Below, in pieces: positions 461-64,000 of a stretch of 64,000 nucleotides of DNA. Position 1 is the first letter of the stretch; each line of letters begins with the position of its first letter. The notes beneath the pieces are model-generated. The model saw only the letters and a program-made list of their open reading frames with translations. It had not been told where the DNA came from and ran no database searches. The stretch covers positions 19,954,324 to 20,018,323 of the forward strand of contig OZ038531.1 of assembly GCA_964036665.1 (NCBI GenBank). Direction: 5' to 3'. Made by a program: the position numbers and the translations under genes. The stretch is from Gordius sp. MW1. Lineage: Eukaryota; Nematomorpha; Gordioida; Gordea; Gordiidae.

Positions 461-691
461 CTATAATATAATAAGTAAAATTAATATTAACATACTTTTA
501 TGTGGGAGATTGTCATGTGCACGTGTCATTGTAAACCTTGCATCTGAATAGAAACCTCTGCCACCACATTCATTTACCCTACATCTGTAGTAAGATTTTG
601 AATCTGTCCCATTGACCTTTGTATAATGATGATCTTGATAAACTAAAATTGGTTTTCTTTTTTGGGATTGAGTAAAATGAACGTGATTCAT
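461..691 (-). pseudogene. FLYWCH-type zinc-finger fragment
   Basis: A 76-codon frame reads KPILVYQDHHYTKV, then SYYRCRVNECGGRGFYSD, then a histidine-containing end (RAHDNLPH). The order of an aromatic strand, Y-x-C-x4-C and a distal H-x(n)-H fits the FLYWCH zinc finger. That domain is common in Mutator-like transposases and in insect domesticated genes. No transposase catalytic domain follows, and the tail after HKSM is hydrophobic read-through. It is probably a lone exon or relic of a FLYWCH/MULE-type gene. Whether it belonged to the TIR element beginning at 858 is unknown. Its boundaries are those of the open frame, not proven ones. Confidence 0.55.
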
Positions 692-713
692 ATTACAATA
701 GGTGTTTTTAGGG

Positions 714-796
714 TTTTTAGAGATTTTTAGAGATTTTTAGAGATTTTTAGTTATTTTTAGTTATTTTTAGAGATTTTTAGAGATTTTTAGAGATTT
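714..796. repeat. 10-bp minisatellite
   Basis: Eight or so copies of AGATTTTTAG, two of them as TTATTTTTAG, in perfect 10-bp register. Confidence 0.9.
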
Positions 797-3301: not shown

Positions 3302-4438
3302 CATGTTAAAACCGCCAACTTTTAAAAATATTGATAACGACAATGCTACACCTCAAATATATGGAAATTATTTATGTTGGAAGTAGGAGATAACAACAAA
3401 CCAACAAGAAAAGTTAAATGCAGGCTTTGTAATGCTATCTATAGTCATAACGTCAAAATAGGTAAAACAAGATTGACTATTAATTCCAACATCTATTTTA
3501 ATATAAACCTTTTTTTTAGGTACAAGTCATTTAAAGAGGCATGCGTGCTAAAAAAAGGAAGAAAGAAATGACAATAATATACTTGTATCATGTATCCAAA
3601 GGCTCCCATCAAAAAATATGAGGCAAGATACTATTAAAGAACTTATATCATATCTCTGCCATGATATGAAGTCGTTTGAATCAATTAATGGTGAGGGCTT
3701 TAAAAAATTCTGCCAATATCTGGTTAAGATTGGTAGTTTACATGGTAATGTAGACATTGATTTTCTATTACCTTCACCAACTACGATATCAAGAAAAACT
3801 AATTCTGCAGACAAATAAGAGCCACGTCGACACCAATATTTAAGGAGTACCTTGATAAAGGCTCCTGTTCTGCGACCACTGACATGTGGACATTTTTGTA
3901 AAAATTCTTACTTGACACTTACTCTTCAATATATAGATAAAAAATTTAAATTAAATAAATTTGTTTTATACAGGGGAAAATATTAAAAAAAAGTCTACTT
4001 TCTAACTTTATATCTCATTGATTTGACCAAGATTATTTTACTCATATAACACAGGTGACAGATTTTGGCGCTAATATGCTTAAAGCACTTGAGAACAATT
4101 AAAGACTGAATTGTTGTGCACATGTATTAAATACTGTGCTGAGAAACACTTGGGAAGAGAATTTTCTGTTAAGTGAGACACCTAAAATATATCAAACTTT
4201 TGTCTGCTGTAAAAAACTTGTACAATATATGAAACAAAGTGGGCTCAAACTGCCTAAAACCCTTTATCAAGATATTAAAACGGTATAGTTATATATGGCA
4301 TTTTTATTAATTATACAATTATTTTAGATGGAATAGCAAAAACAAATTATTTGTTTCTGTACTTGAACAGTTTACAAATATAAAAGGTATGTTGTTTTTT
4401 GTTTTACCTTCTTAATTAATTATAGAAATTTTAGCTCA
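3302..4438 (+). pseudogene. hAT transposase, N-terminal half (BED zinc finger)
   Basis: This is a cut-and-paste transposase of the ZBED/hAT family, acting on the host element's ends in the nucleus. A start MLKPPTFKN at 3302 is soon frame-shifted to GDNNKPTRKVKCRLCNAIYS, the first cysteine pair of a BED finger. TSHLKRHAC follows around 3525-3545, giving the histidine pair, after an unspliced or inserted stretch. Downstream, 3618-3818 carries IKELISYLCHDMKSFESINGEGFKKF, matching the conserved hAT region after the BED finger. Later segments around 3830-4260 show more hAT-like pieces broken by stops. It is non-functional and continues beyond the gypsy insertion at 8697. Confidence 0.8.
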
Positions 4439-4442
4439 AGTT

Positions 4443-4607
4443 TGTAGTGGTCGTGATACGGAGAGAAATATACGCACGCAATCAACCCTCATTTGAATAT
4501 TAACCAACCCATCCCATTATTTTAGACTCGCGATAAATACTTTTGGTTTTTGGTTATCATTAATGTTTTCCGTTAATAAACCATATGTTCCTTTCTTTAA
4601 CGCTATA
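4443..4607 (+). repeat. 5' LTR of gypsy element 1
   Basis: 165 bp, TGTAGTGG...CGCTATA. It matches the 3' LTR except for the extra GCAATCAACC-like segment around 4478-4488 and a few substitutions. Confidence 0.9.
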
Positions 4608-4610
4608 ATA

Positions 4611-4622
4611 TGGTGACCCCGT
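4611..4622 (+). promoter_or_regulatory. primer-binding site of gypsy element 1
   Basis: TGGTGACCCCGT begins 3 nt after the 5' LTR. It starts with TGG, complementary to a tRNA CCA end, as expected for priming of minus-strand synthesis. The tRNA species is not identified. Confidence 0.6.
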
Positions 4623-4690
4623 TCTTTTTTCCCTCCAACAATCTCACAAATTAATTAGTTATTGCTCGCAAACAATCATCTCTTTTCAAA

Positions 4691-5440
4691 ATGGAAAATT
4701 CTACAGAGAAAGAGGGATGTGAAGCAACTATCCAACTGAAAATACCCACATTTTACCGCAGAAATGTTAGAATTTGGCTAGCTCAGGCAGAAGCCGTATT
4801 TCAGGCAAGAAGAATTACATCTGAGAAATCAAAATTTGTATATTCTTGAGACATTACCTCCCGAAATCGCTGAGGAAGTGAAGGATTTAATCATTAATGT
4901 CCCACCTGATCAACCATTTCAGAAACTCAAACAAGCACTTATCAAGAGGGTAGGCGACTCCAATGAATCAAGATTGATGGAATTCCTAACAGCAGTGGAT
5001 TTAGGGGATAGATCCCCATCTCAGCTTTTGCGATACATGAAGAGTTTAGTGGGAACATACGTTCTTGACCAAAAGTTTCTAAAGGAACTCTGGCTTAATA
5101 AATTACCTTGTGAACTAATTCCCATATTAGTCTCGTTTACTGAAGATACTGCACTGGAGAAACTGGCGGAAACAGCCGACCGCATCGTACTGGCCAAAAA
5201 AACTAATTATGTTAATAACATTCATAACCAAAAAAAACACTCCACCGTTGCATACCCTAAAGAACTAACAGATGTTTTATATGCTCTAAATAGGACATTA
5301 GAAAAGATAGGTCAAACCCAGACCCCTTTTCGCCCACCTGGGATTTCGAGCGACAGACCCTGGTGCTGGTATCATAACACCTGGGGATCAAACTCCAGGA
5401 AATGTGTTCAACCATGTTATTTTGGAAAATGTTTAAAAAG
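4691..5440 (+). pseudogene. gypsy element 1 gag
   Basis: This encodes the capsid-like polyprotein of an intracellular retrotransposon particle. It starts at ATG 4691 (MENSTEKEG) and reads the conserved gag block KIPTFYRRNVRIWLAQAEA. Around 4842 one nucleotide appears to be missing, and the frame continues as LETLPPEIAEEVKDLI through about 5440. Further typical motifs are ESRLMEFLTAVDLGDRSPSQLLR and, at the end, the cysteine motif CWYHNTWG-x5-KCVQPC. That motif replaces the classical CCHC knuckle in this gag group. The protein follows the LTR leader and precedes protease in an offset frame. Broken by at least one frameshift. Confidence 0.85.
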
Positions 5441-5447
5441 GCAGGCC

Positions 5448-8444
5448 TACCAGTAAAGGCGATAGCTGGATCCGGCCATAACAACAATAATCGCCTTTTC
5501 TACGTATTTGACAAAATATCAGGGCTCCGCTATTTAATTGACACTGGAGCGCAAATCAGTGTAATACCACCTACCACTAAAATGAAGGTAACACTAAACG
5601 ATATATGTTTAAAAGCAGCAAATTCGAGCGATATAAATACTTTTGGAAAAATATCGTTATCATTAGATATAAGTTTAAACGAGAATTCAAATGGACATTT
5701 TTGATAGCAGATGTACATTCACCTATATTAGGTTCTGATTTTATATCATATTTTGGTTTAATAATTGATATTAAAAATAAACGCCTAATTAATCCACAAA
5801 TTTTTTCTTTAAAAGTATCAAATATAACTAATCCCATTAGCAGCCCAATTTCACAAAATAATGATTTTTACTCCATATTAAAACAATTTCCGGATATTAC
5901 CAAGCCACCGGATTTTAATGACAAAGTAAAACATAATACCAAACACCATATAATAACAAAAGGACCAGCGATCCATTGTTCTCCACGACGTTTAAACCCC
6001 GAAAAATTTCAAATAGCAAAAAAAGAATTTGAAGAAATGAGGAGAGTAGGAATAATACGACCTTCACATAGTAAATGGTCATCCCCCTTACACATGGGCC
6101 CAAAAAAGTCCATGTGGAGATTTTAGAATGCTTAATTACGCAACAAGACCCGATAGATACCCGATACCAAATTTACATGATTTTACTTTAAATCTAACAG
6201 GCAAATTCATTTTTTCAAAGTTGGATTTGGTAAAAGCTTACCATCAAATTCCGGTGGCACCAGAGGACATCCCGAAGACCGCAATCCCAACACCTTTTGG
6301 GCTATTTGAATTTTTAAGAATGCCTTTCGGAGTTCGGAACGCAGCACAAACATTTCAGCGCCTCATAGATGACATTTTTAATGGTTTGGATTTTGTGTAC
6401 GCCTACATTGATGATATACCAGTTCCACAGAACATGTACACAAATTACACCTCGCAACAGTTTTTAAACGATTACAAACATACGGTATTCGGATAAATCT
6501 ATCAAAATGTTCTTTGGGGGTAAGATCATTAAACTTTCTTGGTCATCATGTCGATCAAAATGGCATACGCCCCTTGTCAAACAAATTGACGCGATTAGGG
6601 ATTTTCCGATTCCTCAAACAATGAAGAGTTTGAAACGTTTGGTATGGTGAATTTTTGACGGTTTATACCAAATTGTGCTTCAATTTCGAAACCACTTACC
6701 TATTAAACAGTGATGAGAAAAAGATTAAAATAACGGACGCATAAATTATTTCATTTAATCTCCTAAAATAAAGTATAATTAAAGCAACTAATTTCGGATT
6801 TTTAAAACCAAACTCTTGGTTAACGTTAACCACAGATGCTTCGAACATAGCAGTAGGGGGAGTTTTACACCAAATAATTGATAACAAACAACAACCATTA
6901 GCTTTTTTTTCTCTAAAACAATTAGCAGCTCAAACACGCTATAGTACATTTGGACGAGATTACTAGCTATTTTTATGGCGATTAAACATTTCAAACACAT
7001 ACTGGAAGGACGTCATTTCACTATATTTACGGATCATAAACCTTTAATTTATGCTTTCCAGGCAGAAGTTGATCGTTACTCACCCAGAGAGATTCGACAT
7101 TTAAATTATATCTCGCAATTCAGTACCGACATTCGCTTTATAAAAGGTAATAGTAACATTACAGCGGACACATTATCTCGGTCAGACATAACGTCTCTAA
7201 CTCTACCTTTTTGTCCTAATGACAACCAAATAGTTATGAACCAAATGGATGATCCGGAGTTACTGCTTAACACAAAATCTTTGCGTCTTGTAAAATTAAA
7301 AAGCCCCAGTTGTCAAAAAGACATTCTGTGTGACATATCTACAGGTGCACCGCGACCACTTATACCTACAAGGCTGAGGAAAAATTTCTTCAACCACTTT
7401 CACTCTCTCTCACATCCCGGGATTCGGGCAACTCAAAGACTCATTACCCGCAGTTTTGTGTGGCCATCAATGAACAAAGATATTCGGAATTGGACAAGAG
7501 AATGCATTAAATGTCAAAAATCTAAGGTGAACAAACACACCATCCTTCACCCGGCATTTTTGACGACACCGACCAGAGGTTCAGTCACGTACATTTGGAT
7601 GTGGTAGGCCCTTTACCACCTTCATCTCACAACACCCATATTTTTACAGCCATCGATCGCTTTACGAGATGGCCAATTGCAATAACAATCAACGAGACAT
7701 CAGCGGAAAATTTAGCACGAATATTTATTGAATACTGGGTTGCCAATTTTGGTGTTCCAAAGGTTATAACTACTGATAGAGGGGCTCAATTTACATCCAG
7801 TTTATTCCGAGAATTATCATCCACATTAGGATCTCACCATATCAGAACTACAGCCTATCACCCGTGTTCTAATGGGTTAGTTGAGCGGTTCCATAGGCAG
7901 TTAAAGGCTTCCATCATGACACAGGAAGATACAACAAAATGGAGTGAAACACTACCATTAATTCTTCTCAACATTAGGTCGACAATCAAAGAAGAATCGG
8001 ATACACTCCTTCGGAAATGGTTTATGAGACGACGTTAAGGCTACCAGAGGAATTTTTTCAAAAATCGTTCATAGAATCATCTAAGCCAGGTTATGTAATT
8101 AGACTAAAGAAATAATGCAAAATTTAAAATTCTGCCCTGCCAGAAAACATGATAAGAAGGAATGTATCCCTAATTATTTAAAAACATCAGAGTATGTTTT
8201 TGTACGTAATGACACGGTCAGAAAATCTTTACAACCCCCATACGATGGACCGTTTAAGGTAGTAAAAAGGAGTAAGAAATTTTTTAAAGTGACAAAAGAT
8301 AACAAAGAACAAACCATATCTATTGATAGACTTAAACCAGCATGGATCGAAACAAAAGAAGAGGATAGTAACACTTTACCTGTTCAACAACGGATGTCTA
8401 GATATGGAAGAACTATAACTACTCCACGGAAATTTACTGCTTAA
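5448..8444 (+). pseudogene. gypsy element 1 pol (protease, RT, RNase H, integrase)
   Basis: The protease shows LIDTGAQISVIPP near 5535. The RT begins near 5960 ([17 protein letters not shown]) and runs through [31 protein letters not shown] and catalytic YIDD near 6410. An in-frame stop sits at 6123-6125. The RNase H segment has TTDASNIAVGGVL near 6828 and TDHKPL near 7035. The integrase has the zinc finger HSLSHPG...CIKCQKSK near 7400-7530. Its core carries DVVGPLPPSS, FTAIDRFTRWP, ITTDRGAQFTS and NGLVERFHRQLK, so the D, D and E catalytic residues are all visible. The C-terminal part (YDGPFKVVKRSKKFF...SIDRLKPAW) resembles the tail that binds DNA. Several frameshifts make it non-functional as read. 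Confidence 0.9.
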
Positions 8445-8480
8445 AAATTTTGATGTATACATATCTTTTTCTTTTTTTTA

Positions 8481-8493
8481 GAGGGGGAGTATC
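8481..8493 (+). promoter_or_regulatory. polypurine tract of gypsy element 1
   Basis: GAGGGGGAG directly precedes the 3' LTR, the usual place for plus-strand priming. Confidence 0.6.
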
Positions 8494-8648
8494 TGTAGTG
8501 GTCGTGATACGGAGAGAAATATACGCACCTCATTTAAATATTAACCAACCCATCCCATTATTTTAGACTCGCGATAAATAGTTTTGGTTTTTGGTTATCA
8601 TTAATGTTTTCCGTGAATAAACCATATGTTCCTTTCTTTAACGCTATA
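8494..8648 (+). repeat. 3' LTR of gypsy element 1
   Basis: 155 bp, TGTAGTGG...CGCTATA. It is followed by the target duplication AGTT at 8649-8652. Confidence 0.9.
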
Positions 8649-8696
8649 AGTTAATGAACTTGATAGAGTTAACATGTTAAAACCTTACAAGGCATC

Positions 8697-9373
8697 ATTA
8701 ATTTTTTAGAGCCATTTGTAATGGCTACAAATGATTTGGAAGCTGACTGTAAACCAACAATTCATTTGGTTGTATTATGGCATAAAAAATTGTTGGCTTT
8801 GTTGACAATTTATGATAATGATGCTGAATTCCCAAAAATTAGAAAAAGGGCAAAAACTTATCTTGTTGATAAGTTTGTTCTTAATGAGCATCATCTCATA
8901 GCTACCTTTTTAATACCTAAATACAAGAACATGAAAATGTTAATCATAATGAACGGTTAAGCTTATATGCCATAAGGCTTAAAATATCAATCATCCCACA
9001 TGATGGGAGAAACAATAAAACAATTCTGGGGAATAATGCTAAAAAGCTTTGTATGTCTAATGATGTACAATTGAATGATTTTTCTATGTTTGAAGCAGAA
9101 AAACCAGCATTTTCAAAAGAACTTGATGAGGTTCAAAAATATATTGATTTGAAATATACATCATCATCTTCTACCTCAAATGATGATAATGATCTTACAT
9201 GGTGGAAAAACCACACTGTAAATTTTTTTATAAGCTAGCTACTCAATACTTAGCTACCCCAGCCTCCTCTGGAAGTAGTGAAAGAACTTTTTCAACTGCC
9301 GGCCGAGTTTTAGAAGAAAATAGGTCACGATTGAGCCCGGAAAATCTAGAATCCATACTAACATAATCTAAAA
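8697..9373 (+). pseudogene. hAT transposase, C-terminal half (dimerisation domain)
   Basis: This continues the hAT transposase after the gypsy insertion. The frame at 8721-8960 reads MATNDLEADCKPTIHLVV, then VDKFVLNEHHLIATFLIPKYK, a well-conserved hAT block. After stops and a frame change, 9240-9370 reads YLATPASSGSSERTFSTAGR followed by a segment ending RLSPENLESIL. This is the signature of the hAT C-terminal dimerisation domain. The gene is broken but clearly colinear with the BED half upstream of 4438. Confidence 0.9.
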
Positions 9374-39676: not shown

Positions 39677-40086
39677 ATTCCATTTCAAATTTCTAACATA
39701 ACAAATAAGCCAACTATAATGTTCGTGAAACGCTAAATACGATATTCCTTTTACAAAAACAACACAATTACATAATAATTTTATTATTACAAACAAAACT
39801 ATTTAAAAGGGACTAAAAAATATGAACTTTAAAAATGTTGAGCCCAAGAGTGTAACGAAAAGACCGGATGTTAACAAAAATGAGTTTAATGAAATGAGCT
39901 AAAAGCAAATAAGCACCGATGATTGATTAATCTTTAAATCCATTTTTATAACTCATGGTTGAGGAGTAAAACGGAGATATTCCTTCTTAGATGGCAAATC
40001 AACTTTTGCAATGCCTTTGGGAAATAACTTGGGTACTTCCTCTGGGGCAATGGTTGGAAGAACCATACATTGATTACCGGGCTATA

Positions 40087-40094
40087 TATATAAT
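40087..40094. repeat. 8-bp target duplication, left (TATATAAT)
   Basis: Identical to 51338-51345. It lies 3 bp from the exon 6 acceptor AG of Prx6 (40082-40083, read on the minus strand). Confidence 0.9.
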
Positions 40095-40176
40095 CATAGA
40101 CTAATAGACTGCTCATTCCCGTTGCATTCATTTGAAATTTTATCGGCTGATTATATCCACCATATTGAATAGGATA

Positions 40177-43100
40177 ATGTCGTTTTGCTCTGCTATCAAC
40201 TGTAGCAACAGTCGGAAGAAATTCAAGGATTTATCTTTCCACAAGTAAGTATTTATATAAAATTTATATAATTTTTTTCATATAATAGATTCCCCTTAAA
40301 AAACAAATTGCTCCTCAAAGCTGGGATGAGTGAGATCAAGAGAGAGTTTGTGCCTAATAATCACTCTGCACTTTGTAGCCAACATTTTACACCTGATTCA
40401 TATATTCCATCTGTCACTAAATACAAGCAACTTAGCATGGGCGTACGCAGGTTTTGAATTAGGGGGGGGCAAAACGTTCAAAAGTTCATTTAGAGGGGGG
40501 CAAAACATAATTTTTTTTAATTTTTCAATGTTTTTGCATTGAAAATTTTTTTTTTTCATAAATTAGGGGGGGGGGCAGCCGCCCCCCCCTGCCCCACCCT
40601 GCGTACGCCCATGCAACTTAGAGAAGGTTCCATACCTACTATTTTTAATTTGCCTAAACATCTTCAAAAAGTAATTGACAAAATATATATTACTTATAAT
40701 AATCCTATTCTAGAAACCAGTAACAACAAGAAGTTCTTATAATTCATCAATAAGTCCTCTTGTAGATATTACAAATAATTTGTCTAGAAAAAGAAAGATA
40801 CCTAGGAAAATACAGTTTGACCCCCCTGAAGTGGTAGAACTTTCTCCTGACAATACCTTTTCTAAAATTAAACAGGCACTAGCAGCCAGCAGGTTAGTAT
40901 CTCAAAATTCTAAATTGAAGAAGACCATAAAACGTCTAAAAGCCAGTACCAGGAGGTACAGGCAAAAAATCATCAAACTGAAGGATATAGTTAGAGATCT
41001 GAAGAATGATAATCATCTTAATGGGGATGAAGACAAAATCATTGCCAACTACTTCGAAGGAGAAGCCCTTGTGCTTGTTAACAGCCATATTAAATCAGGA
41101 GGTGTTAACAATCCTAAAAAAATTGTATTTACCCAACCCCTAAAACAATTGGCTTTGACTCTCCATTATTACTCTGCAAGTGCTTACAGGAACCTAGGAA
41201 GAATTATTTGCCTTCCATCTGAATCATCTTTAAGAAGATGGAGTGTATGTCTAAATGTTGATCCAGGTATATTAAGCAATATTAATTTTGGTTTAAATAA
41301 CTTTTTATAGGGTTCCTCAATTGCTCTATTAATAAAATAAAAGAATATCAAATGAAGTCTTTAAAACCCATCTATATAGCATTGTCTATTGATGAGATGG
41401 CTATTAGGAAAAATATTCATTGGGATGGCAATAAATATCATGGGTATGTACTAAATTTTAATTTTTTTCAAATAACAATCTCTGAATATTTTTAGATATG
41501 TGGATCTAGGGCAGGATATAACTGATTGTAATATGATCCCATATGCCACTGGTGCATTATTTGTCATGGCCACATCTATCAACAATACCTGGAAAATTCC
41601 ATTAGGGTACTTTTTAGTATCTTCTGTAACTTCAGAGTTACTCAAAAATATTCTTTTGGATGCAATTTTCCACGTTAATGGCACAGGTGCTGTTGTGAAA
41701 GCTATCACCTGCGATGGTCTTGCAAGTAACAAAAGATTGGCATATGACTTGGGAATAGGGTTTGACCAACATCAACCTAAACCCTACTTTTATCACCCAC
41801 AATTTCTTCTTGAGAAAATCTTCTTCCTGTTCGATGTATGCCATATGATGAAGCTACTACGTAATCTTTTAGCAGAAGCTAAGGTTTTAAAAGATAATGA
41901 AAATAAGGTAAATATAATTTTTTTATTTTATATTCAATATTATAGCTAATTAAATGGGAGTACATTGTAAGACTTCACAACCTTCAGAAAAAGGAAGGAT
42001 TAAGAGCAGCTAATCGCCTCACTGCTTCTCATATCTATTATATAAATAATAAAATGAAGGTATATTTGTGTTTGTAAAATTTAGCATTTTAAAATTAGGT
42101 CAAGCTTGCTACTCAAGTATTTTCAGCTTCTGTAGCAAAAGGACTTATTCTAGCAAGGGATTTGCAAGAACCTGGATTTCAAGATTCCACAGCCACTATT
42201 GAATTTATTGATTTGATTAACAGGTAAAATAATACAAATTCTACATATTACAACTTTTAGATTGTTTGATACGATGAATAGTAGAAATCTACTGGCTAAG
42301 GGCGACAAAAAACCTTTAACTCCAGAGAGCCTCTCTAATTGTATAGACCTCTATGCCAAAGGTATCGAAGTGCTAGCTGGCTTGAAGTTAGAAAATGACA
42401 AACCAGTTATATCTTCAGGGAAAAGGATGTGTGTTGTGGGATTGATGGCAGCTATGCATTCAATACCTATGTTAGCTAAAGAGCTATTACTTAAAGAATC
42501 ATCTTCGATGAAGTATAAATATAAACATTGACTTTAATATTCTTGTAGATATTTTATGACTTACAAATTGAGCCAGGATCACCTGGAGTTGTTTTTTTCA
42601 ACAATTCGATCTCGCGGTGGTTATAATAATAATCCCTCCGCGTACCAATTGCGATCGGCTGTGAGGGGAATTCTTTTAGGAAAAGTTATTAGCCCTCTTA
42701 CCGGCAATTGTAATAATTTTGGCGACACTGCAGTAGTTTGTGCCGATTTCCAGCCCCGTGGGAACGAAGATGATTTCACTTCTGCAGGCGTGGCCGAAGA
42801 AGACGATGATATTCACTTAACTGACCCACATTTATCGTTATACACCGAAAATGTTACCACTTATATCGCTGGATATATTGTCAGAAAATTGATCGAAGAA
42901 GGTAAAATTACGTGTTTAGATTGTGTTAATGCCCTTATTTTAAATAATGACGGTTCCTATAATTGTAATTATTACTTAATAAACCTTAAGATAAGGGAAA
43001 TCATATAATTCCATCAGACAACTTAATCAAACTTTGCAAGATTATTTTTTCTATTTTCAATTCTTTCAAAGACGAGAAATACTTATTAAATAAAAACGCT

Positions 43101-43254
43101 GTATTAATTATTGAAAGTAAAATTTTTTCTAAAATTATTGGCACATCAATTTTTAATAATTTGTCTAATCATATACTAGAACAGGATAATTTTTCATCGC
43201 ATTTTTATATATTACTAAAACTTATTATCGAATTCCTGAGAAAAGGAATATGAT
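40177..43254 (+). pseudogene. P-element-like transposase, left arm (THAP domain)
   Basis: A GTP-dependent cut-and-paste transposase family (P element/THAP9). Exon 1 (40177-40244): MSFCSAINCSNSRKKF, first cysteine pair of the THAP finger, then a GTAAGT donor. Exon 2 from 40289: FPLKNKLLLKAGMSEIKRE, SALCSQHFTPDSYI, giving C-x2-H. It is interrupted by a MITE at 40436-40613. Next comes a basic coiled coil (KKTIKRLKASTRRYRQKIIK, about 40918), then LALTLHYYSASAYRN, YVDLGQDITD (41496-41525) and AITCDGLAS (41701-41727), the latter two carrying aspartates plausible for the RNase H-like core. The C-terminus has LSQDHLELFFSTIRSRGG (42565) and ends near 43254. Small introns interrupt it, and a frame break near 42990 truncates it. 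Non-functional as read. Confidence 0.88.
40436..40613. mobile_element. CATGGGCGTACGC MITE inside the left-arm THAP exon
   Basis: Perfect 8-bp duplication CAACTTAG (40428-40435, 40614-40621) and ends CATGGGCGTACGCAGG / CCTGCGTACGCCCATG. The mirror position in the right arm (about 51001) has a single uninterrupted CAACTTAG, so the MITE arrived after the arms were duplicated. Confidence 0.97.
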
Positions 43255-44570
43255 TTGCGATTTAAAAACTATAAACAAAAAGGTTTGAAGGAAGGGGGAA
43301 TCATCATTAGGAACAATATTGGGACGCATTGAGGGATGGCCGGGCTTAAAGCCACTAATTGCGAATTTTGAAGGAAGAATTCTTAGGAATTAATTTGGGG
43401 AATTTAAAGGAAGGATAGGGGGAAATATTGTTGGGGGATGGCCGGGCTTAATAGCCACTAAATAAAGATAACTTTACCGCTCTACATTTCGCCAATCTAT
43501 TTTATTACAAGAAAAATTATATTATTGTATCAATCTCCTTACTACAAATCACTCATACGTATTCATGTTGATAAACAATCATATATGGGAAGAAATAAAT
43601 AACACAAACGTGTAAGCGCGTCGGGGGGGTAACATACGCGTACTAGGAATTAAATGTAAAAGAATAATGGTCTACGCTATTAGTGTACAATGTGTAAGAT
43701 CAAAAGAATTGTACCGCGTGTTGAACTCTTAACTTTAATTTTTGAATAAGATGAGATGGGGGGGGGGGGGGGTGTGTGGGAAGATATCTTCATCTTCGTA
43801 TCTCCGGATACGATACCTTTCCCTTTTTAAAGTCGAAGACTTAATGTATTTTCGATAGAGTTCCGTGTTGTTGAGTGCAACTCTCAAGGCGGCGTTATTA
43901 ACATTATAAGTTTCAAACATCTGGCATTGAATACCAACTCTGGCCTTTGCTCACACGACGACTGATATATGTAAAAATCAGTGATAAAAAGGCAACGTCA
44001 TGGCTAACGGTTTTTTTCCAGCTCTGTGACTCCTCGAGCAACAGCCTCAACAAAACTTATAATTAATATAGATTGTAAACTGCCATTTTGGAAATTATTC
44101 TTTCTTGCGCCGCGCAGACTCTCAAATAATAGTCAAAGAAACAGCGGGGGAGGGGGGTTTAAATATTGGTTAACAATATAATTTTCATATAATTAATATA
44201 TGTATATAAATCAAGTGTATAATTCTGTTTTACAATAATATTTTAGCGGCACATTAAGAATTTAGGCCTTGAGAATTAGTTAGGGATGATTCTGAATAAT
44301 TGATATTTTCAGTTTCGAAATTTTCATTCGTTTGAAGAATTCTGCCATCTGTTCTCAGACATATTGGAATATCCATTTAATTATGTTTGCGGTTTAAATT
44401 TGGTAGCCAATTGTTCGAAGGAATAGTTTTCTTCCACCGTCTCCCAATATTTCCGAATCATGGATTGGTTCGATTGTTCTAGTACGTGGTTCGATTGCTT
44501 TTTAATCCCGGCGAAGTGGTTCGATTGTTTTACTGGAATAATTTTATCCAATATCCCTGCGCTGTGACGG
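43255..44570. other. unassigned non-coding part of the left arm
   Basis: Between transposase and gypsy tail. Holds two copies of GGATGGCCGGGCTTAA...AGCCACTAA (43333 and 43436), CG-containing motifs and a G run at 43760-43773. Minus-strand frames at 43735-43920 and 44381-44596 have no recognised motif, though the second repeats the unit QSNH/QSNQ. The same DNA is present inverted at about 47070-48390. Confidence 0.5.
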
Positions 44571-45438
44571 TTGTTCATTAAAAAATGGTTGAACATAGCT
44601 AAAGTAACGAAGGACGGAACGTGGTTATCTAAACTTTATCACAATATGTCACCACGGTATCCTAATCGTGCTCCGGTTAGCTATGAGTTTTTGAATCGTA
44701 AATTAAGGTACCCACCCGACTTTTTAAAGTTCACTGAACACCAAACATCGCCCAGTATTAGTGTGCCAAAGTTTACGGTAAACCAAAGAGTTTGGTATCG
44801 AAACTATTTGGGTAAACCTAAATGGGTGTTAGGTGTAATTATTGAACAGTTAGGTAACAAAATCTACAAAGTTAAGGACTTAAAGGAAAATAAATTTGAA
44901 ATTAGGCATGCTGAACAATTAAAATTGTTTGATGCTATATAATTATGTTCAACGTTTATTGCTATTCAGATGAGAATTAATGCTGCTTGGTGCGACTTAG
45001 ATTTGGAAGTGACATCTACTGCATCAAGGAACGAAAGAGTTCCAGTATACATTCTAATCAAAGTGGAGACGGACGAAAGTGCACGATTACTAAGCTTGAC
45101 GCACTCTCTGGGTCCGCCAGGCCAGGTCGGGAGGTCGTATCCACAACGCCCAAGATCTCCAAGACGACCAAGACAGGAGGGGGCTGCGGTCAGAAGAAAC
45201 GGAAATACGAGCGGGGAGCAACGACGAAACGTATCTGGAAATCCACCGTTACTCCGTCCTCCGATCTTGAAAAGGAAGAAGTGTTGGGGGTGTAAGGCCA
45301 AACACCTGCCCCCAATGTGCTTAAAATTAAAAAACCGGTTTGGGAAAGACAACCCAACAACGATATCACAGAGCTGGAGTCCGGGGTGATTATGGACACC
45401 CTGAATTTGGACAGCCCTGGCCCTTCGACTTCTCAATA
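44571..45438 (+). pseudogene. gypsy integrase C-terminus, left arm
   Basis: SPRYPNRAPVSYEFLNRKLRY, then FTVNQRVWYRNYLGKPKWVL and IIEQLGNKIYKVKDL, HAEQLKLFDA: the segment after the integrase core in K02A2.6-like gypsy elements. The core is absent upstream. A further frame (MRINAAWCDLDLEV...) or its alternative continues to about 45438, ending LNLDSPGPSTSQ-stop in one frame. The left copy has a frameshift relative to the right arm. A purine tract AAAAGGGAAAGG leads into the LTR. Confidence 0.75.
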
Positions 45439-45449
45439 AAAGGGAAAGG

Positions 45450-46062
45450 TGTGGTATACGTGTATACCACGTAACCATATGTTGGTATATCGCGTTTTAA
45501 TGTCCGCGGTATACTTTGATCTTACTTAGATTTATTTTATTAATATTAATGTAAAAGGGTAAGAACGGTTCTGCAATCCTTATAATTAAAAAAAAAGAAA
45601 TTGGTCAAAGGAAGGCATTTTTACCGCGGGTTAACCTAGACGCGGAAGTGGCTAATTTTCGTTGACGCTTTCTTTTTTTAATTACTTTTTATTTTAATTT
45701 TTAACCCAGCCACATATGGAACTCATTTTTGCAGTCCCGTCTGAAGATTTCCCGTACATTGCTCGTTCAATCAAGTCCACCACCCTGGGAAGATTCAACA
45801 GCTATAAAAGCGAAATCCCATGTCAATAATTCAGTCCTTATAAATTTTTCCAAAACTTTGTACTCTTCCTAAATCCTTGTAATTGTCCCCAATCCCTACA
45901 TCTTTCCCCTTTTATTGTAATTTTACGGAACATTATAATTTTACCGTCGCCGATCACTTTAATTGTAAATCGCCTTTAATTGTAAATATTTAGACGTATT
46001 AGCGTAAATAAAGTTAATTTAAATCCTTCGCTCAGCCTTTTTTTTCCCCTCGCCAGCTAAAT
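45450..46062 (+). repeat. gypsy LTR at the palindrome centre
   Basis: Begins TGTGGTATACGTG directly after a purine tract. Has a TATAAAAG box at 45803-45810 and AATAAA at 46007-46012. The first part matches 63580-63948. The exact 3' end is uncertain because an inverted copy is fused at about 46063. Confidence 0.75.
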
Positions 46063-46063
46063 T
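45588..46063. other. unpaired centre of the palindrome
   Basis: Arms are complementary up to ...GCAATCCTTATAATT on the left (about 45587) and its complement on the right (about 46064). The 476 bp between are single-copy LTR sequence. Confidence 0.85.
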
Positions 46064-46199
46064 ATAAGGATTGCAGAACCGTTCTTTAACCCTTTTACAT
46101 TAATATTAATAAAATAAATCTAAGTAAGATCAAAGTATACCGCGGACATTAAAACGCGATATACCAACATATGGTTACGTGGTATACACGTATACCACA
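46064..46199 (-). repeat. truncated inverted LTR, right arm
   Basis: Read on the minus strand, TGTGGTATACGTG... starts at 46199 and matches the left LTR for about 136 bp, then stops at the fusion point. Confidence 0.85.
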
Positions 46200-46209
46200 C
46201 CTTTCCCTT

Positions 46210-47079
46210 TTATTGAGAAGTCGAAGGGCCAGGGCTGTCCAAATTCAGGGTGTCCATAATCACCCCGGACTCCAGCTCTACGATATCGTTGGGTTGGGTT
46301 TTCTTTCCCAAACCGGTTTTTAATTTTAAGCACATTGGGGGCAGGTGTTTGGCCTTACACCCCCAACACTTCTTCCTTTTCAAGATCGGAGGACGGAGTA
46401 ACGGTGGATTTCCAGATACGTTTCGTCGTTGCTCCCCGCTCGTATTTCCGTTTCTTCTGACCGCAGCCCCCTCCTGTCTTGGTCGTCTTGGAGATCTTGG
46501 GCGTTGTGGATACGACCTCCCGACCTGGCCTGGCGGACCCAGAGAGTGCGTCAAGCTTAGTAATCGTGCACTTTCGTCCGTCTCCACTTTGATTAGAATG
46601 TATACTGGAACTCTTTCGTTCCTTGATGCAGTAGATGTCACTTCCAAATCTAAGTCGCACCAAGCAGCATTAATTCTCATCTGAATAGCAATAAACGTTG
46701 AACATAATTATATAGCATCAAACAATTTTAATTGTTCAGCATGCCTAATTTCAAATTTATTTTCCTTTAAGTCCTTAACTTTGTAGATTTTAGTACCTAA
46801 CTGTTCAATAATTACACTTAACACCCATTTAGGTTTACCCAAATAGTTTCGATACCAAACTCTTTGGTTTACCTTAAACTTTGGCACACTAATACTGGGC
46901 GATGTTTGGTGTTCAGTGAACTTTAAAAAGTCGGGTGGGTACCTTAATTTACGATTCAAAAACTCATAGCTAACCGGAGCACGATTAGGATACCGTGGTG
47001 ACATATTGTGATAAAGTTTAGATAACCACGTTCCGTCCTTCGTTACTTTAGCTATGTTCAACCATTTTTTAATGAACAA
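46210..47079 (-). pseudogene. gypsy integrase C-terminus, right arm
   Basis: Inverted copy of 44571-45438. Two open frames, 47079-46708 (FKVNQRVWYRNYLGKPKWVL, HAEQLKLFDA) and 46680-46210 (MRINAAWCDLDLEV..., ending LNLDSPGPSTSQ), are uninterrupted here, whereas the left arm has a frameshift. The second frame may be a genuine continuation or an overlap; its arginine/proline-rich middle and CWGCKAKHLPPMC segment are not a recognised domain. Confidence 0.75.
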
Positions 47080-48391
47080 CCGTCACAGCGCAGGGATATT
47101 GGATAAAATTATTCCAGTAAAACAATCGAACCACTTCGCCGGGATTAAAAAGCAATCGAACCACGTACTAGAACAATCGAACCAATCCATGATTCGGAAA
47201 TATTGGGAGACGGTGGAAGAAAACTATTCCTTCGAACAATTGGCTACCAAATTTAAACCGCAAACATAATTAAATGGATATTCCAATATGTCTGAGAACA
47301 GATGGCAGAATTCTTCAAACGAATGAATCCCGAAACTGAAAATATCAATTATTCAGAATCATCCCTAACTAATTCTCAAGGCCTAAATTCTTAATGTGCC
47401 GCTAAAATATTTTTGTAAGACAGAATTATACACTTGATTTATATACATATATTAATTATATGAAAATTATATTGTTAACCAATATTTAAACCCCCTCCCC
47501 CGCTGTTTCTTTGACTATTATTTGAGAGTCTGCGCGGCGCAAGAAAGAATAATTTCCAAAATGGCAGTTTACAATCTATATTAATTATAAGTTTTGTTGA
47601 GGCTGTTGCTCGAGGAGTCACAGAGCTGGAAAAAAACCGTTAGCCATGACGTTGCCTTTTTATCACTGATTTTTACATATATATGTCGTCGTGTGAGCAA
47701 AGGCCAGAGTTGGTATTCAATGCCAGATGTTTGAAACTTATAATGTTAATAACGCCGCCTTGATAGTTGCACTCAACAACACGGAACTCTATCGAAAATA
47801 CATTAAGTCTTCGACTTTTAAAAGGGAAAGGTATCGTATCCGGAGATACGAAGATGAAGATATCTTCCCACACACCCCCCCCCATCTCATCTTATTCAAA
47901 AATTAAAGTTAAGAGTTCAACACGCGGTACAATTCTTTTGATCTTACACATTGTACACTAATAGCGTAGACCATTATTCTTTTACATTTAATTCCTAGTA
48001 CGCGTATGTTACCCCCCCCCCCGACGCGCTTATACGTTTGTGTTATTTATTTCTTCCCATATATGATTGTTTATCAACATGAATACGTATGAGTGATTTG
48101 TAGTAAGGAGATTGATACAATAATATAATTTTTCTTGTAATAAAATAGATTGGCGAAATGTAGAGCGGTAAAGTTATCTTTATTTAGTGGCTATTAAGCC
48201 CGGCCATCCCCCAACAATATTTCCCCCTATCCTTCCTTTAAATTCCCCCAATTAATTCCTAAGAATTCTTCCTTCAAAATTCGCAATTAGTGGCTTTAAG
48301 CCCGGCCATCCCTCAATGCGTCCGAATATTATTCCTAATGATGATTCCCCCTTCCTTCAAACCTTTTTGTTTATAGTTTTTAAATCGCAAA
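47080..48391. other. unassigned non-coding part of the right arm
   Basis: Inverted copy of 43255-44570, including the C run at about 47872-47882 and GCCCGGCCATCC motifs near 48199 and 48300. Confidence 0.6.
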
Positions 48392-51255
48392 TCATATTCT
48401 TTTTCTCAGGAATTCGATAATAAGTTTTAGTAATATATAAAAATGCGATGAAAAATTATCCTGTTCTAGTATATGATTAGACAAATTATTAAAAATTGAT
48501 GTGCCAATAATTTTAGAAAAAATTTTACTTTCAATAATTAATACAGCGTTTTTATTTAATAAGTATTTCTCGTCTTTGAAAGAATTGAAAATAGAAAAAA
48601 TAATCTTGCAAAGTTTGATTAAGTTGTCTGATGGAATTATATGATTTCCCTTATTCTTAAGGTTTATTAAGTAATAATTACAATTATAGGAACCGTCATT
48701 ATTTAAAATAAGGGCATTAACACAATCTAAACACGTAATTTTACCTTCTTCGATCAATTTTCTGACAATATATCCAGCGATATAAGTGGTAACATTTTCG
48801 GTGTATAACGATAAATGTGGGTCAGTTAAGTGAATATCATCGTCTTCTTCGGCCACGCCTGCAGAAGTGAAATCATCTTCGTTCCCACGGGGCTGGAAAT
48901 CGGCACAAACTACTGCAGTGTCGCCAAAATTATTACAATTGCCGGTAAGAGGGCTAATAACTTTTCCTAAAAGAATTCCCCTCACAGCCGATCGCAATTG
49001 GTACGCGGAGGGATTATTATTATAACCACCGCGAGATCGAATTGTTGAAAAAAACAACTCCAGGTGATCCTGGCTCAATTTGTAAGTCATAAAATATCTA
49101 CAAGAATATTAAAGTCAATGTTTATATTTATACTTCATCGAAGATGATTTTTTAAGTAATAGCTCTTTAGCTAACATAGGTATTGAATGCATAGCTGCCA
49201 TCAATCCCACAACACACATCCTTTTCCCTGAAGATATAACTGGTTTGTCATTTTCTAACTTCAAGCCAGCTAGCACTTCGCCTTTGGCATAGAGGTCTAT
49301 ACAATTAGAGAGGCTCTCTGGAGTTAAAGGTTTTTTGTCGCCCTTAGCCAGTAGATTACTACTATTCATCGTATCAAACAATCTAAAAGTTGTAATATGT
49401 AGAATTTGTATTATTTTACCTGTTAATCAAATCAATAAATTCAATAGTGGCTGTGGAATCTTGAAATCCAGGTTCTTGCAAATCCCTTGCTAGAATAAGT
49501 CCTTTTGCTACAGAAGCTGAAAATACTTGAGTAGCAAGCTTGACCTAATTTTAAAATGCTAAATTTTACAGACAATATACCTTCATTTTATTATTTATAT
49601 AATAGATATGAGAAGCAGTGAGGCGATTAGCTGCTCTTAATCCTTCCTTTTTCTGAAGGTTGTGAAGTCTTACAATGTACTCCCATTTAATTAGCTATAA
49701 TATTGAATATAAAATAAAAAAAATTATATTTACCTTATTTTCATTATCTTTTAAAACCTTAGCTTCTGCTAAAAGATTACGTAGTAGCTTCATCATATGG
49801 CATACATCGAACAGGAAGAAGATTTTCTCAAGAGGAAATTGTGGGTGATAAAAGTAGGGTTTAGGTTGATGTTGGTCAAACCCTATTCCCAAGTCATCTG
49901 CATCTTTTGTTACTTGCAAGACCATCGCAGGTGATAGCTTTCACAACAGCACCTGTGCCTTAACGTGGAAAATTGCATCCAAAAGAATATTTTTGAATAA
50001 CTCTGAAGTTACATAAGATACTAAAAAGTACCCTAATGGAATTTTCCAGGTATTGTTGATAGATGTGGCCATGACAAATAATGCACCAGTGGCATATGGG
50101 ATCATATTACAATCAGTTATATCCTGCCCTAGATCCACATATCTAAAAATATTCAGAGATTGTTATTTGAAAAAAATCAAAATTTAGTACATACCCATGA
50201 TATTTATTGCCATCCCAATGAATATTTTTCCTAATAGCCATCTCATCAATAGACAATGCTATATAGATGGGTTTTGAAGACTTCATTTGATATTCTTTTA
50301 TTTTATTAATAGAGCAATTGAGGAACCCTATAAAAAGTTATTTAAACCAAAATTAATATTGCTTAATATACCTGGATCAACATTTAGACATACACTCCAT
50401 CTTCTTAAAGATGATTCAGATGGAAGGCAAATAATTCTTCTTAGGTTCCTGTAAGCACTTGCAGAGTAATAATGGAGAGTCAAAGCCAATTGTTTTAGGG
50501 GTTGGGTAAATACAATTTTTTTAGGATTGTTAACACCTCCTGATTTAATATGGCTGTTAACAAGCACAAGGGCTTCTCCTTCGAAGTAGTTGGCAATGAT
50601 TTTGTCTTCATCCCCATTAAGATGATTATCATTCTTCAGATCTCTAACTATATCCTTCAGTTTGATGATTTTTTGCCTGTACCTCCTGGTACTGGCTTTT
50701 AGACGTTTTATGGTCTTCTTCAATTTAGAATTTTGAGATACTAACCTGCTGGCTGCTAGTGCCTGTTTAATTTTAAAGTTCTACCACTTCAGGGGGGTCA
50801 AACTGTATTTTCCTAGGTATCTTTCTTTTTCTAGACAAATTATTTGTAATATCTACAAGAGGACTTATTGATGAATTATAAGAACTTCTTGTTGTTACTG
50901 GTTTCTAGAATAGGATTATTATAAGTAATATATATTTTGTCAATTACTTTTTGAAGATGTTTAGGCAAATTAAAAATAGTAGGTATGGAACCTTCTCTAA
51001 GTTGCTTGTATTTAGTGACAGATGGAATATATGAATCAGGTGTAAAATGTTGGCTACAAAGTGCAGAGTGATTATTAGGCACAAACTCTCTCTTGATCTC
51101 ACTCATCCAAGCTTTGAGGAGCAATTTGTTTTTTAAGGGGAATCTATTATATGAAAAAAATTATATAAATTTTATATAAATACTTACTTGTGGAAAGATA
51201 AATCCTTGAATTTCTTCCGACTGTTGCTACAGTTGATAGCAGAGCAAAACGACAT
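48392..51255 (-). pseudogene. P-element-like transposase, right arm
   Basis: Mirror copy of the left-arm transposase, start codon at 51255. The THAP exon is uninterrupted (NNHSALCSQHFTPDSYIPS directly followed by VTKYKQLREGS). A 20-nt deletion near 50780 (absent from the left arm) shifts frame before the coiled coil. The domain around 49925-50138 is broken near 49965 (FHVKAQVLL instead of FHVNGTGAVV). The C-terminal frame 49090-48392 (232 codons, from MTYKLSQDHLELFFSTIRS) is open where the left copy is truncated. So the two arms carry different lesions and neither encodes a whole enzyme. Confidence 0.88.
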
Positions 51256-51337
51256 TATCCTATTCAATATGGTGGATATAATCAGCCGATAAAATTTCAA
51301 ATGAATGCAACGGGAATGAGCAGTCTATTAGTCTATG

Positions 51338-51345
51338 TATATAAT
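51338..51345. repeat. 8-bp target duplication, right (TATATAAT)
   Basis: Identical to 40087-40094. Confidence 0.9.
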
Positions 51346-52367: not shown

Positions 52368-52463
52368 CTTCGCTTATTTCAATTAAATTGACTAGCGTTT
52401 AGTTCGAGAATTTATGTTATTATATATTAAATTAGTAAGTAGTCAAGAATTTTCAATCCGTTT

Positions 52464-52864
52464 ATATAAATGTCATTGTTTAAAGTCGGTGTATTTGGAT
52501 TGATAGCGTAGGTAGAGGGAAATGGAACGCGATATTTCTGGCTGTAAAAGCCCATCGTCAGGGGAAAAAATAATAAAAATAAAAAAGGAGAGATGAAGGT
52601 TCAAAAAATAAAAAATGAAGTAAAGTGAGTAAATATTTCTGGCTATAACCAGTTTTGTAATTTCTATTGTTTTTTTTGTACCTATATCTCCGTATTTACT
52701 CACTTTACTTTATTTTCTATTTTTTGAGCCTTCATCTCTCCTTTTTTATTTTTATTATTTTTTCCCCTGACGATGGGCTTTTACAGCCAGAAATATCGCG
52801 TTCCATTTCCCTCTACCTACGCTATCAATCCAAATACACCGACTTTAAACAATGACATTTATAT
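52464..52864. mobile_element. large hairpin (foldback) in Prx6 intron 4
   Basis: Arms 52464-52634 and about 52693-52864 are near-perfect inverted repeats around a 58-nt loop (CAATGACATTTATAT complements ATATAAATGTCATTG). The two frames in it encode the same peptide because of the symmetry and are not genes. Confidence 0.85.
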
Positions 52865-52927
52865 TAAATTAGTCTTTGATTATAACGGCACTTAGGGTGT
52901 GTAAATAAATTTAAGCTCTGCAATAGG

Positions 52928-63579: not shown

Positions 63580-63948
63580 TGTGGTATACGTGTATACCAC
63601 GTTTTAATGATCGCGGTATACTTTGATCTTTTTTATTATTTGTACCGTAAAAGGGTTAAAGAATGGTTCGGCAATCCTTGTATTAAAAAAAAGGAATGGT
63701 TAAAGAAAGGCACTTTTACCGCGGGTTAACCTATACGCGGAAGTGGCTAAGTATGTTTGAAGTTTTTTTTAAATTACTTTTAATTTTTAACTTAGCAACA
63801 TCTGCTATTCATTGCGCACCCCCGTCTGAAGATTTCCAGTACAATGATCGCAGCCCACCACCCAGGGGAGATTCAACGTCTTTAAAAGCGAAATCTCACA
63901 TCATTTTTTACTCTTTGTAAATTTTCCCCAATCTTTGTACTCTTTCTC
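63580..63948 (+). repeat. gypsy LTR copy, truncated
   Basis: TGTGGTATACGTG... matches the LTR at 45450 onward, including ACCGCGGGTTAACCTA and AAAAGCGAAATC. Cut at 63948 by a P-type terminus. Confidence 0.85.
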
Positions 63949-64000
63949 CATAGACTAAATAGACTGCTCATTCGCTTTAAAAAAGTGATGCCAATTTTGA
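63949..64000 (+). mobile_element. P-type terminus, element runs off the window
   Basis: CATAGACTAAATAGACTGCTC is nearly identical to the composite's end. Only 52 bp are visible. Confidence 0.75.

What the first reader, a model, noticed from the sequence alone, without database searches (positions are those of the whole stretch)
40087..51345. An 11-kb palindromic P-element composite that transposed as one unit using two copies of the same end
Both outer ends are the same P-type terminus (CATAGACTAATAGACTGCTC, transposase-5' side) and are bordered by a perfect 8-bp duplication TATATAAT. The inside is two 5.3-kb near-identical inverted arms, each with a THAP transposase relic and a captured gypsy 3' end, meeting in one LTR. 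Classical P elements need unlike 5' and 3' ends; here a like-like pair was apparently accepted, and a piece of retrotransposon was carried along. This is a plausible route for building large composite or cargo-carrying P elements.
Basis: partly seen in the sequence, partly recalled or inferred. Interest (0 to 1): 0.93.

Follow-up and report, generated by a model that had tools for sequence, protein, structure and literature searches.

The report
Palindromic P-element with two 5' ends
An 11.2-kb transposon made of two mirror-image copies of the front part of a P element, with bits of two other mobile elements in the middle, sits just before the last exon of a peroxiredoxin-6 gene; it is real, but whether it jumped there with two identical ends or was built on the spot by faulty DNA repair cannot yet be told.

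Summary
The insert (40095-51337) is flanked by TATATAAT twice and is a palindrome of two arms about 98.4% identical.

The host genome was searched. The 5 other strong matches to this P 5' end are each paired with an unlike 3' end (extra C in the terminal repeat, about 495 bp of different sequence). The insert lacks that end and carries two 5' ends. A Prx6 paralog without the insert aligns to the joined flanks with no gap, confirming one insertion with an 8-bp duplication. The three internal junctions occur only here, so no donor or second copy was found.

Like-like transposition fits, but so does in-place gap repair after a P excision, in which both broken ends copied the 5' side; a published Galileo model uses similar logic. 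I slightly favour repair (0.50) over like-like transposition (0.37). A new variant of a known kind.

The parts
40087..40094 (.). left 8-bp target-site duplication TATATAAT
   Evidence: empty-site paralog
51338..51345 (.). right 8-bp target-site duplication TATATAAT
40095..40119 (+). left P 5'-type terminus (no extra C in terminal repeat)
51313..51337 (-). right terminus, identical P 5' type
40095..43228 (+). P element 5' part, left arm: THAP/RNase H/GBD transposase gene lacking its C-terminal end, about 495 bp and the 3' terminus
48417..51337 (-). P element 5' part, right arm, same truncation point
40436..40613 (.). 178-bp element (ends CATGGGCGTACGCAGG) with 8-bp duplication CAACTTAG, left arm only; inserted after the palindrome formed, or lost by conversion on the right
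43229..44578 (+). fragment R1 of a high-copy repeat; begins within a few bp of the repeat's usual start (TATCG), cut short at 44578
47072..48416 (-). R1 fragment, right arm
44579..46056 (+). LTR retrotransposon 3' end, 5'-truncated just after the integrase core; LTR from 45450, lacking its last 7-8 bp
46057..46059 (.). 2-3 nt of unmatched sequence at the centre join
46060..47071 (-). LTR retrotransposon 3' end, right arm, stopping 138 bp into the LTR (partner of 45587)
39953..40081 (-). last exon of a peroxiredoxin-6 gene; inferred acceptor AG at 40082-40083, insert starts 11 bp upstream of it

Best explanation
It is a P-derived palindrome made by double-strand-break repair. A P-family element sat at TATATAAT and was excised by transposase. 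Both broken ends still carried part of the short terminal repeat. Both ends then copied inward from the 5' end of a P element that already held the repeat R1 and a retrotransposon 3' end; one copy tract ran to 46056 and the other to the partner of 45587. The two tracts were joined inside the LTR by end joining, leaving 2-3 extra bases. The result has two 5' ends and keeps the old 8-bp duplication, so no pairing of like ends is needed. Shown: anatomy, truncation points, shared junctions, an insertion with an 8-bp duplication. Inferred: the excision, the copying, and the identity of the earlier occupant.
For: The P|R1 and R1|retrotransposon junctions are identical in both arms and occur nowhere else in the genome at up to 3 mismatches, so the chimera arose once and was then duplicated in inverted form. 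The centre looks like an end-joined, unequal meeting of two copies of one tract: LTR minus 7-8 bp, 2-3 nt filler, LTR again from an internal point. The P 5' and 3' terminal repeats share CATAGACTAA and TAGACTGCTCATTC, so a broken 3' end could pair with a 5' end. MITEs of the family have both terminal repeats equal to the P 5' repeat over 22 bp (L006, L008; one end has one change in L002/L004 and more in L001), so excision of such a MITE would leave two 5'-matching ends. Published support: 17-nt staggered cleavage at each end (PMC7776569, section 8 read); P gaps filled from sister or homolog, in some cases ectopic templates (PMC1562414, passages); a model in which Galileo repairs one terminal repeat from the other and recruits internal sequence in inverted orientation (PMC3573991, passages). 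Like ends were not seen in 13 other convergent pairs of fetched loci, nor, within 25 kb, in the 100 listed 5'-type, 27 CATCGAAG-type and 32 3'-type ends apart from this insert.
Against: If the earlier occupant was an autonomous P element, its 3' repeat has an extra C at position 11, inside the 17-nt overhang; the right end shows no trace of it, so it must have been trimmed or corrected. If the occupant was a MITE, the chimeric template must have lain elsewhere and been lost, since none was found in the assembly. Pairing through about 20 bp against a fully homologous sister is unlikely per event (inference). The rarity of like ends counts equally for any rare origin.
Confidence: 0.5

Rival explanations
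1. Like-like transposition. The palindrome formed elsewhere, for example by fusion of two sister chromatids broken in the LTR. Transposase then paired its two 5' ends, excised the 11.2-kb unit and inserted it here, making the TATATAAT duplication. A variant pairs the 5' ends of two sisters directly (hybrid-element insertion with like ends), the insides being joined later.
For: Both ends are exact 5' type from the first base, which needs no correction step. The unit is bounded exactly by terminal repeats and one 8-bp duplication, and an empty-site paralog confirms a clean insertion. MITEs with two 5'-type terminal repeats but unlike inner sequence have transposed here with 8-of-8 matching target duplications (L006, L008, and L001 with changes at one end), so the repeat itself is no bar. 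Cut-and-paste explains a missing donor.
Against: No second copy; the 5 other strong matches to this 5' end are paired with a 3' end. Of 100 listed exact 5'-type 25-mers (394 matches at up to 2 mismatches in all) only this pair converges within 25 kb. In Drosophila P the ends differ in spacing to the transposase site, 9 and 21 bp, likened to the 12 and 23 signals of V(D)J (PMC7776569, section 6 read). It needs two rare steps, palindrome then like-like pairing.
Confidence: 0.37
2. Two P copies inserted independently in opposite orientation, followed by deletion between them.
For: P-family elements do nest: L070 holds one P inside another.
Against: Two insertions would be expected to carry two different target duplications; here one duplication brackets the whole, the paralog shows a single gapless site, and both arms share two junctions found nowhere else.
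Confidence: 0.04
3. It belongs to a Galileo/Foldback-like P family that normally has long identical inverted ends.
For: Long inverted arms, P-type transposase, 8-bp duplication; Galileo elements are P-superfamily and Foldback-like (PMC4168063 and PMC3573991, passages).
Against: The 5 other strong copies of the same P 5' end have short terminal repeats and unlike 3' ends; the long arms were found at this one place.
Confidence: 0.03
4. Assembly artefact: a mirrored read or mis-joined haplotype.
For: Palindromes are a known failure mode of assembly (recalled).
Against: The arms differ by 31 substitutions, 14 gap openings and an element private to the left arm; both flanks align to one paralogous stretch and Prx6 exons lie on both sides.
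Confidence: 0.03

Closest known systems
P element of Drosophila (P superfamily)
   Same: THAP, HTH, split RNase H with GTP-binding insertion, acidic residues aligned to 6p5a, 8-bp target duplication
   Different: Canonical elements have unlike 5' and 3' ends and one transposase gene; this has two 5' ends, two truncated genes and foreign repeats inside
Galileo (P superfamily, Foldback-like)
   Same: Long inverted repeats; internal sequence recruited into the repeats in inverted orientation; authors propose repair of one end from the other (PMC3573991, passages)
   Different: Galileo repeats are about 0.6-1.3 kb in the passages read and found across copies; here 5.3-5.5-kb arms at one locus in a family with short terminal repeats, including most of the transposase gene and other mobile elements
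P-derived MITEs (described in Anopheles, PMC1562414, passages; also seen here)
   Same: Terminal repeats shared with an autonomous P family; 8-bp duplications
   Different: Here 273-282 bp with unlike inner ends; no palindrome
Alternative transposition / hybrid-element insertion (P, maize Ac; seen only in a search listing: PMC3744419, PMC3470690)
   Same: Ends of different copies used together to give rearrangements
   Different: Those use compatible 5' and 3' ends (recalled); here both ends are 5'

Membership tests
P superfamily of DNA transposons | THAP domain plus P-type HTH, RNase H and GTP-binding insertion domains | tested here: met
   five Pfam models above cut-off for the conceptual protein of copy L073; over the P part the arms differ from this copy at 15 of 2,915 (right) and 16 of 2,943 (left) sites
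P superfamily of DNA transposons | D-D-E catalytic residues | tested here: met
   IDEM, TCDG and HLELFF of the L073 protein align with acidic residues of 6p5a; the left arm reads all three, the right arm is frameshifted around the second
P superfamily of DNA transposons | 8-bp target-site duplication | tested here: met
   TATATAAT on both sides; joined flanks with one copy align without gap to an empty paralog
Canonical P element | unlike 5' and 3' ends | tested here: not met
   both ends 5' type; the 5 other strong matches have the unlike 3' end
Canonical P element | complete transposase gene | tested here: not met
   both arms break off at 43228/48417 before the C-terminal end; small frameshifting indels in each arm
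Galileo / Foldback-like | long inverted repeats shared by the whole family | tested here: not met
   found only at this locus
Like-like transposed composite | second copy or donor showing movement as a unit | tested here: not met
   no other copy of any of the three junctions at up to 3 mismatches; cut-and-paste loss of the donor is not excluded
Like-like transposed composite | transposase accepts two 5' ends | not testable with these tools
   needs a transposition assay
LTR retrotransposon, Ty3/gypsy type | integrase core upstream of the captured piece in other copies; LTR | tested here: inconclusive
   rve domain in copy L082, the one copy tested; the captured piece has 43 other matches at 93-98% identity. 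Gypsy rather than another LTR clade was not tested; the small ORFs of the insert gave no Pfam match

The most novel reading that the evidence does not exclude
A P-type transposase paired two identical 5' ends in vivo and moved an 11.2-kb palindrome carrying parts of two other mobile elements into a Prx6 intron, so the 5'/3' asymmetry of P elements is a preference and not a requirement.
Probability: 0.37. Interest if true: 0.75.

Novelty: new variant of a known kind. Interest (0 to 1): 0.56.

Why it matters
The two ends of P elements differ in spacing, a difference likened to the 12 and 23 signals of V(D)J recombination (PMC7776569); that transposition needs one of each is recalled, not taken from a call. 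This locus is a natural 5'/5' element with an intact target duplication, in a genome that also holds a full-length 3,440-bp copy, MITEs and an empty site, so the need for unlike ends can be tested in this family. Either answer is useful: relaxed end pairing, or a repair route that turns ordinary P elements into foldback-like elements with long inverted arms and nested cargo, as proposed for Galileo.

Tried and rejected
Rejected: two independent insertions (one shared duplication, shared unique junctions). A Galileo-like family with long terminal repeats (the other copies are short-ended). In-place fusion of two broken sister chromatids at this site: it would put an inverted copy of the left flank on the right, but 3 kb of each flank share only short dispersed repeats (one 53-bp piece inverted, the rest direct), and both flanks align to one empty paralog. 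A reciprocal 3' fragment elsewhere: the one orphan 3' end, C8:21160256, starts at P position 2588 and carries no match to R1 or the retrotransposon in the 6 kb fetched.

Led nowhere: a common inner motif in the first 200 bp of the 5' and 3' ends (one search found none of 9 bp or more outside the terminal repeat); a classification of R1 (a tandem-prone repeat usually starting TATCG; Helitron kinship is only a guess). Not attempted: naming the host organism (the protein-database search was left unused). Not done: a genome-wide count of like-like MITEs, because pattern listings stop at 100 places.
Full report
OBSERVATION. The insert is bounded by CATAGACTAATAGACTGCTC at 40095 (+) and 51337 (-), each followed outward by TATATAAT. 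It is 11,243 bp long. A self-comparison of the window gives two inverted blocks, 40087-40435 with 51343-50997 (349 columns, 1 mismatch, 1 gap opening) and 40610-45587 with 51008-46060 (98.4% over 4,988 columns, 31 mismatches, 14 gap openings). Between the two blocks the left arm holds a 178-bp element, 40436-40613, with ends CATGGGCGTACGCAGG and the 8-bp duplication CAACTTAG; the right arm lacks it. The chance of an 8-of-8 flank match is about 8 in 100,000 for random pairs from this window (159 of 2,000,000), but the flank is AT-rich and TATATAAT occurs 14 times in the window.

HOST GENOME. The window lies at G000:C5:19954324-20018323 of a 211.8-Mb genome in 12 contigs. A 25-base 5' terminus with up to 2 mismatches has 394 matches there (188 + 206), of which 100 were listed. 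The 340-bp P 5' end has 41 matches (40 of 42 candidates scored), of which 7 are strong (331-340 bases at 99% or more): the two ends of the insert and five others, fetched as L069-L073. The tool warns that such counts are lower bounds.

NORMAL P COPIES. L073 is 3,440 bp long with GTTAGGAC on both sides. Four of the five copies (L069, L071, L072, L073) match the arm up to 43228 exactly and then continue with a shared sequence of about 495 bp (interrupted in L069) that ends in a 3' terminus with one extra C, CATAGACTAACTAGACTGCTCATTCG. L071 has that C too but is otherwise mutated at both ends. L070 is internally deleted over that point but has the same 3' end. L072 and L073 share the target duplication and the 3' flank and look like one insertion in a duplicated stretch, so four independent insertions are seen. 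The missing C and the inner sequence show that both ends of the insert are 5' ends.

LIKE AND UNLIKE ENDS. In the fetched loci, which were drawn by end-like queries and are no random sample, 13 convergent pairs of ends are seen besides the insert, and all 13 are unlike. Nine have 8-of-8 matching flanks (L001, L006, L008, L028, L069, both pairs of L070, L072, L073), two have 7 of 8 (L002, L004, duplicates of each other), and two have no matching flanks (L020, L074). Five of the 13 are 273-282-bp MITEs. Among the 100 listed exact 25-mers only the insert's pair converges within 25 kb. Neither do any of the 27 listed CATCGAAG-type ends or the 32 3'-type ends.

TRANSPOSASE. A conceptual protein of L073 gives THAP, Tnp_P_element, TNP-like RNase H N and C and the GTP-binding insertion domain, all above Pfam cut-off. 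It aligns with the Drosophila P transposase structure 6p5a at E 1.3e-25 with the three acidic positions in register (the residues are named in PMC7776569). The arms' genes stop short of the C-terminal end and each carries indels; the right arm is frameshifted around the second aspartate and the left arm near 42990.

WHAT LIES INSIDE. From 43229 to 44578 both arms carry a fragment, R1, of a high-copy repeat (877 and 1,095 first-look candidates, 40 scored each). Of 22 hits that reach the start, 16 begin at 43226 (TATCG), so the P|R1 join is within a few bases of the repeat's usual start. Other copies continue past 44578 with a different sequence, so R1 is cut short there. From 44579 on, the arms carry the 3' end of an LTR retrotransposon; outside this insert its last kilobase has 43 matches at 93-98% identity (40 of 336 candidates scored). 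In the copy tested an integrase core lies just upstream (rve, L082), and two more copies align to it. Its LTR starts at 45450 and lacks its last 7-8 bases compared with six other copies. Then follow 2-3 unmatched bases and the inverted arm, which begins 138 bp into the LTR. The joins P|R1, R1|retrotransposon and centre occur at 2, 2 and 1 places at up to 3 mismatches, all in this insert. The chimera therefore formed once and was duplicated afterwards.

TIME ORDER. Over the P part the arms differ at 11 of 2,918 sites; they differ from L073 at 15 of 2,915 (right) and 16 of 2,943 (left). Reading the columns, four substitutions are shared by both arms against all other copies with data, five are private to the right arm and six to the left. 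The P part had therefore been separate for a while before the duplication. Gene conversion between arms would make the duplication look younger than it is.

THE SITE. The insert begins 11 bp upstream of the inferred acceptor AG of the last exon of a minus-strand gene. The exon (39953-40081) matches peroxiredoxin-6 residues 184-224; another exon, near 55 kb, matches AhpC/TSA. The joined flanks with one TATATAAT match a paralog about 49 kb away (C5:19945359-19945729, 86%) without a gap at the site, though its bases there read TATATAGGTAAA against TATATATATAAT. This supports the reading that insert plus one TATATAAT were added to an empty site. It does not say whether the thing first added was the palindrome.

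MECHANISM. Two accounts fit. In the first, which I favour slightly, a P-family element at this site was excised. P transposase cuts with a 17-nt stagger (PMC7776569, section 8 read), leaving terminal-repeat bases on both broken ends (inference). Both ends copied the 5' side of a P that already contained R1 and the retrotransposon piece, and were joined in the LTR. The Galileo authors propose a similar step, one terminal repeat repaired from the other, with the inner sequence appearing inverted next to it (PMC3573991, passages), and P gaps are described as filled from sister or homolog, in some cases from ectopic templates (PMC1562414, passages). In the second, the palindrome was formed elsewhere and its two 5' ends were paired by transposase. 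The first must explain why the extra C of a 3' end is absent at the right end, or, if the earlier occupant was a MITE with 5'-like repeats, where the template went. The second must overcome the end asymmetry of P elements (9 against 21 bp spacing in Drosophila; PMC7776569, section 6 read) and needs the palindrome beforehand. That MITEs with two 5'-type terminal repeats have transposed in this genome weakens the objection from the repeat itself, but their inner ends are unlike. No result here decides between them.

LITERATURE. The listings (titles and abstract starts) of seven searches show no paper on a P element with two 5' ends moving as a unit. The library holds only open-licence papers, so older P-element work was mostly out of reach. 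Claims about P-end requirements beyond the review are recalled.

VERDICT. A real P-derived palindrome with two 5' ends, found at one locus. It is a new variant of known kinds of P-superfamily structural change. The most novel reading, like-like transposition, remains open at about 0.37.

Noticed in passing
39953-40094: The insert starts 11 bp upstream of the inferred splice acceptor of the last Prx6 exon, so the T-rich stretch seen there in the paralog (L085) is moved 11 kb away; splicing of this gene may be altered.
   Followed up: partly
L085 (C5:19945300-19945800): A Prx6 paralog about 49 kb upstream, 86% identical around the site, without the insert: a natural empty-site control.
   Followed up: yes
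63592-64000 and L074: A relative of the central LTR (76%) is interrupted from 63949 by a P-family element whose end has an extra A at the place of the extra C (CATAGACTAAATAGACTG); a second, unlike end lies at L074:1953, but the 8-bp flanks do not match.
   Followed up: partly
L070: A P element (5559-8979, TATATAAC duplication) nested inside a larger P-family element (611-9341, GTCCTAAC duplication).
   Followed up: no
L084 (C8:21154401-21160400): An orphan P 3' end, positions 2588-3440 only, 99.8% identical, with no terminal repeat of the family at its other side in the 6 kb fetched.
   Followed up: partly
fetched P-family ends: The longer P-family pairs seen combine one terminal repeat with and one without an extra base at position 11, while the MITEs of 273-282 bp have none at either end; a possible spacing rule.
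   Followed up: partly
L072 and L073 (C6): What looks like the same P insertion twice, about 54 kb apart, in a duplicated stretch; one copy carries a further insertion of about 1.6 kb within the P element.
   Followed up: no
52461-52867: A stretch of about 400 bp, just right of the insert, that matches its own reverse complement at 88%.
   Followed up: no
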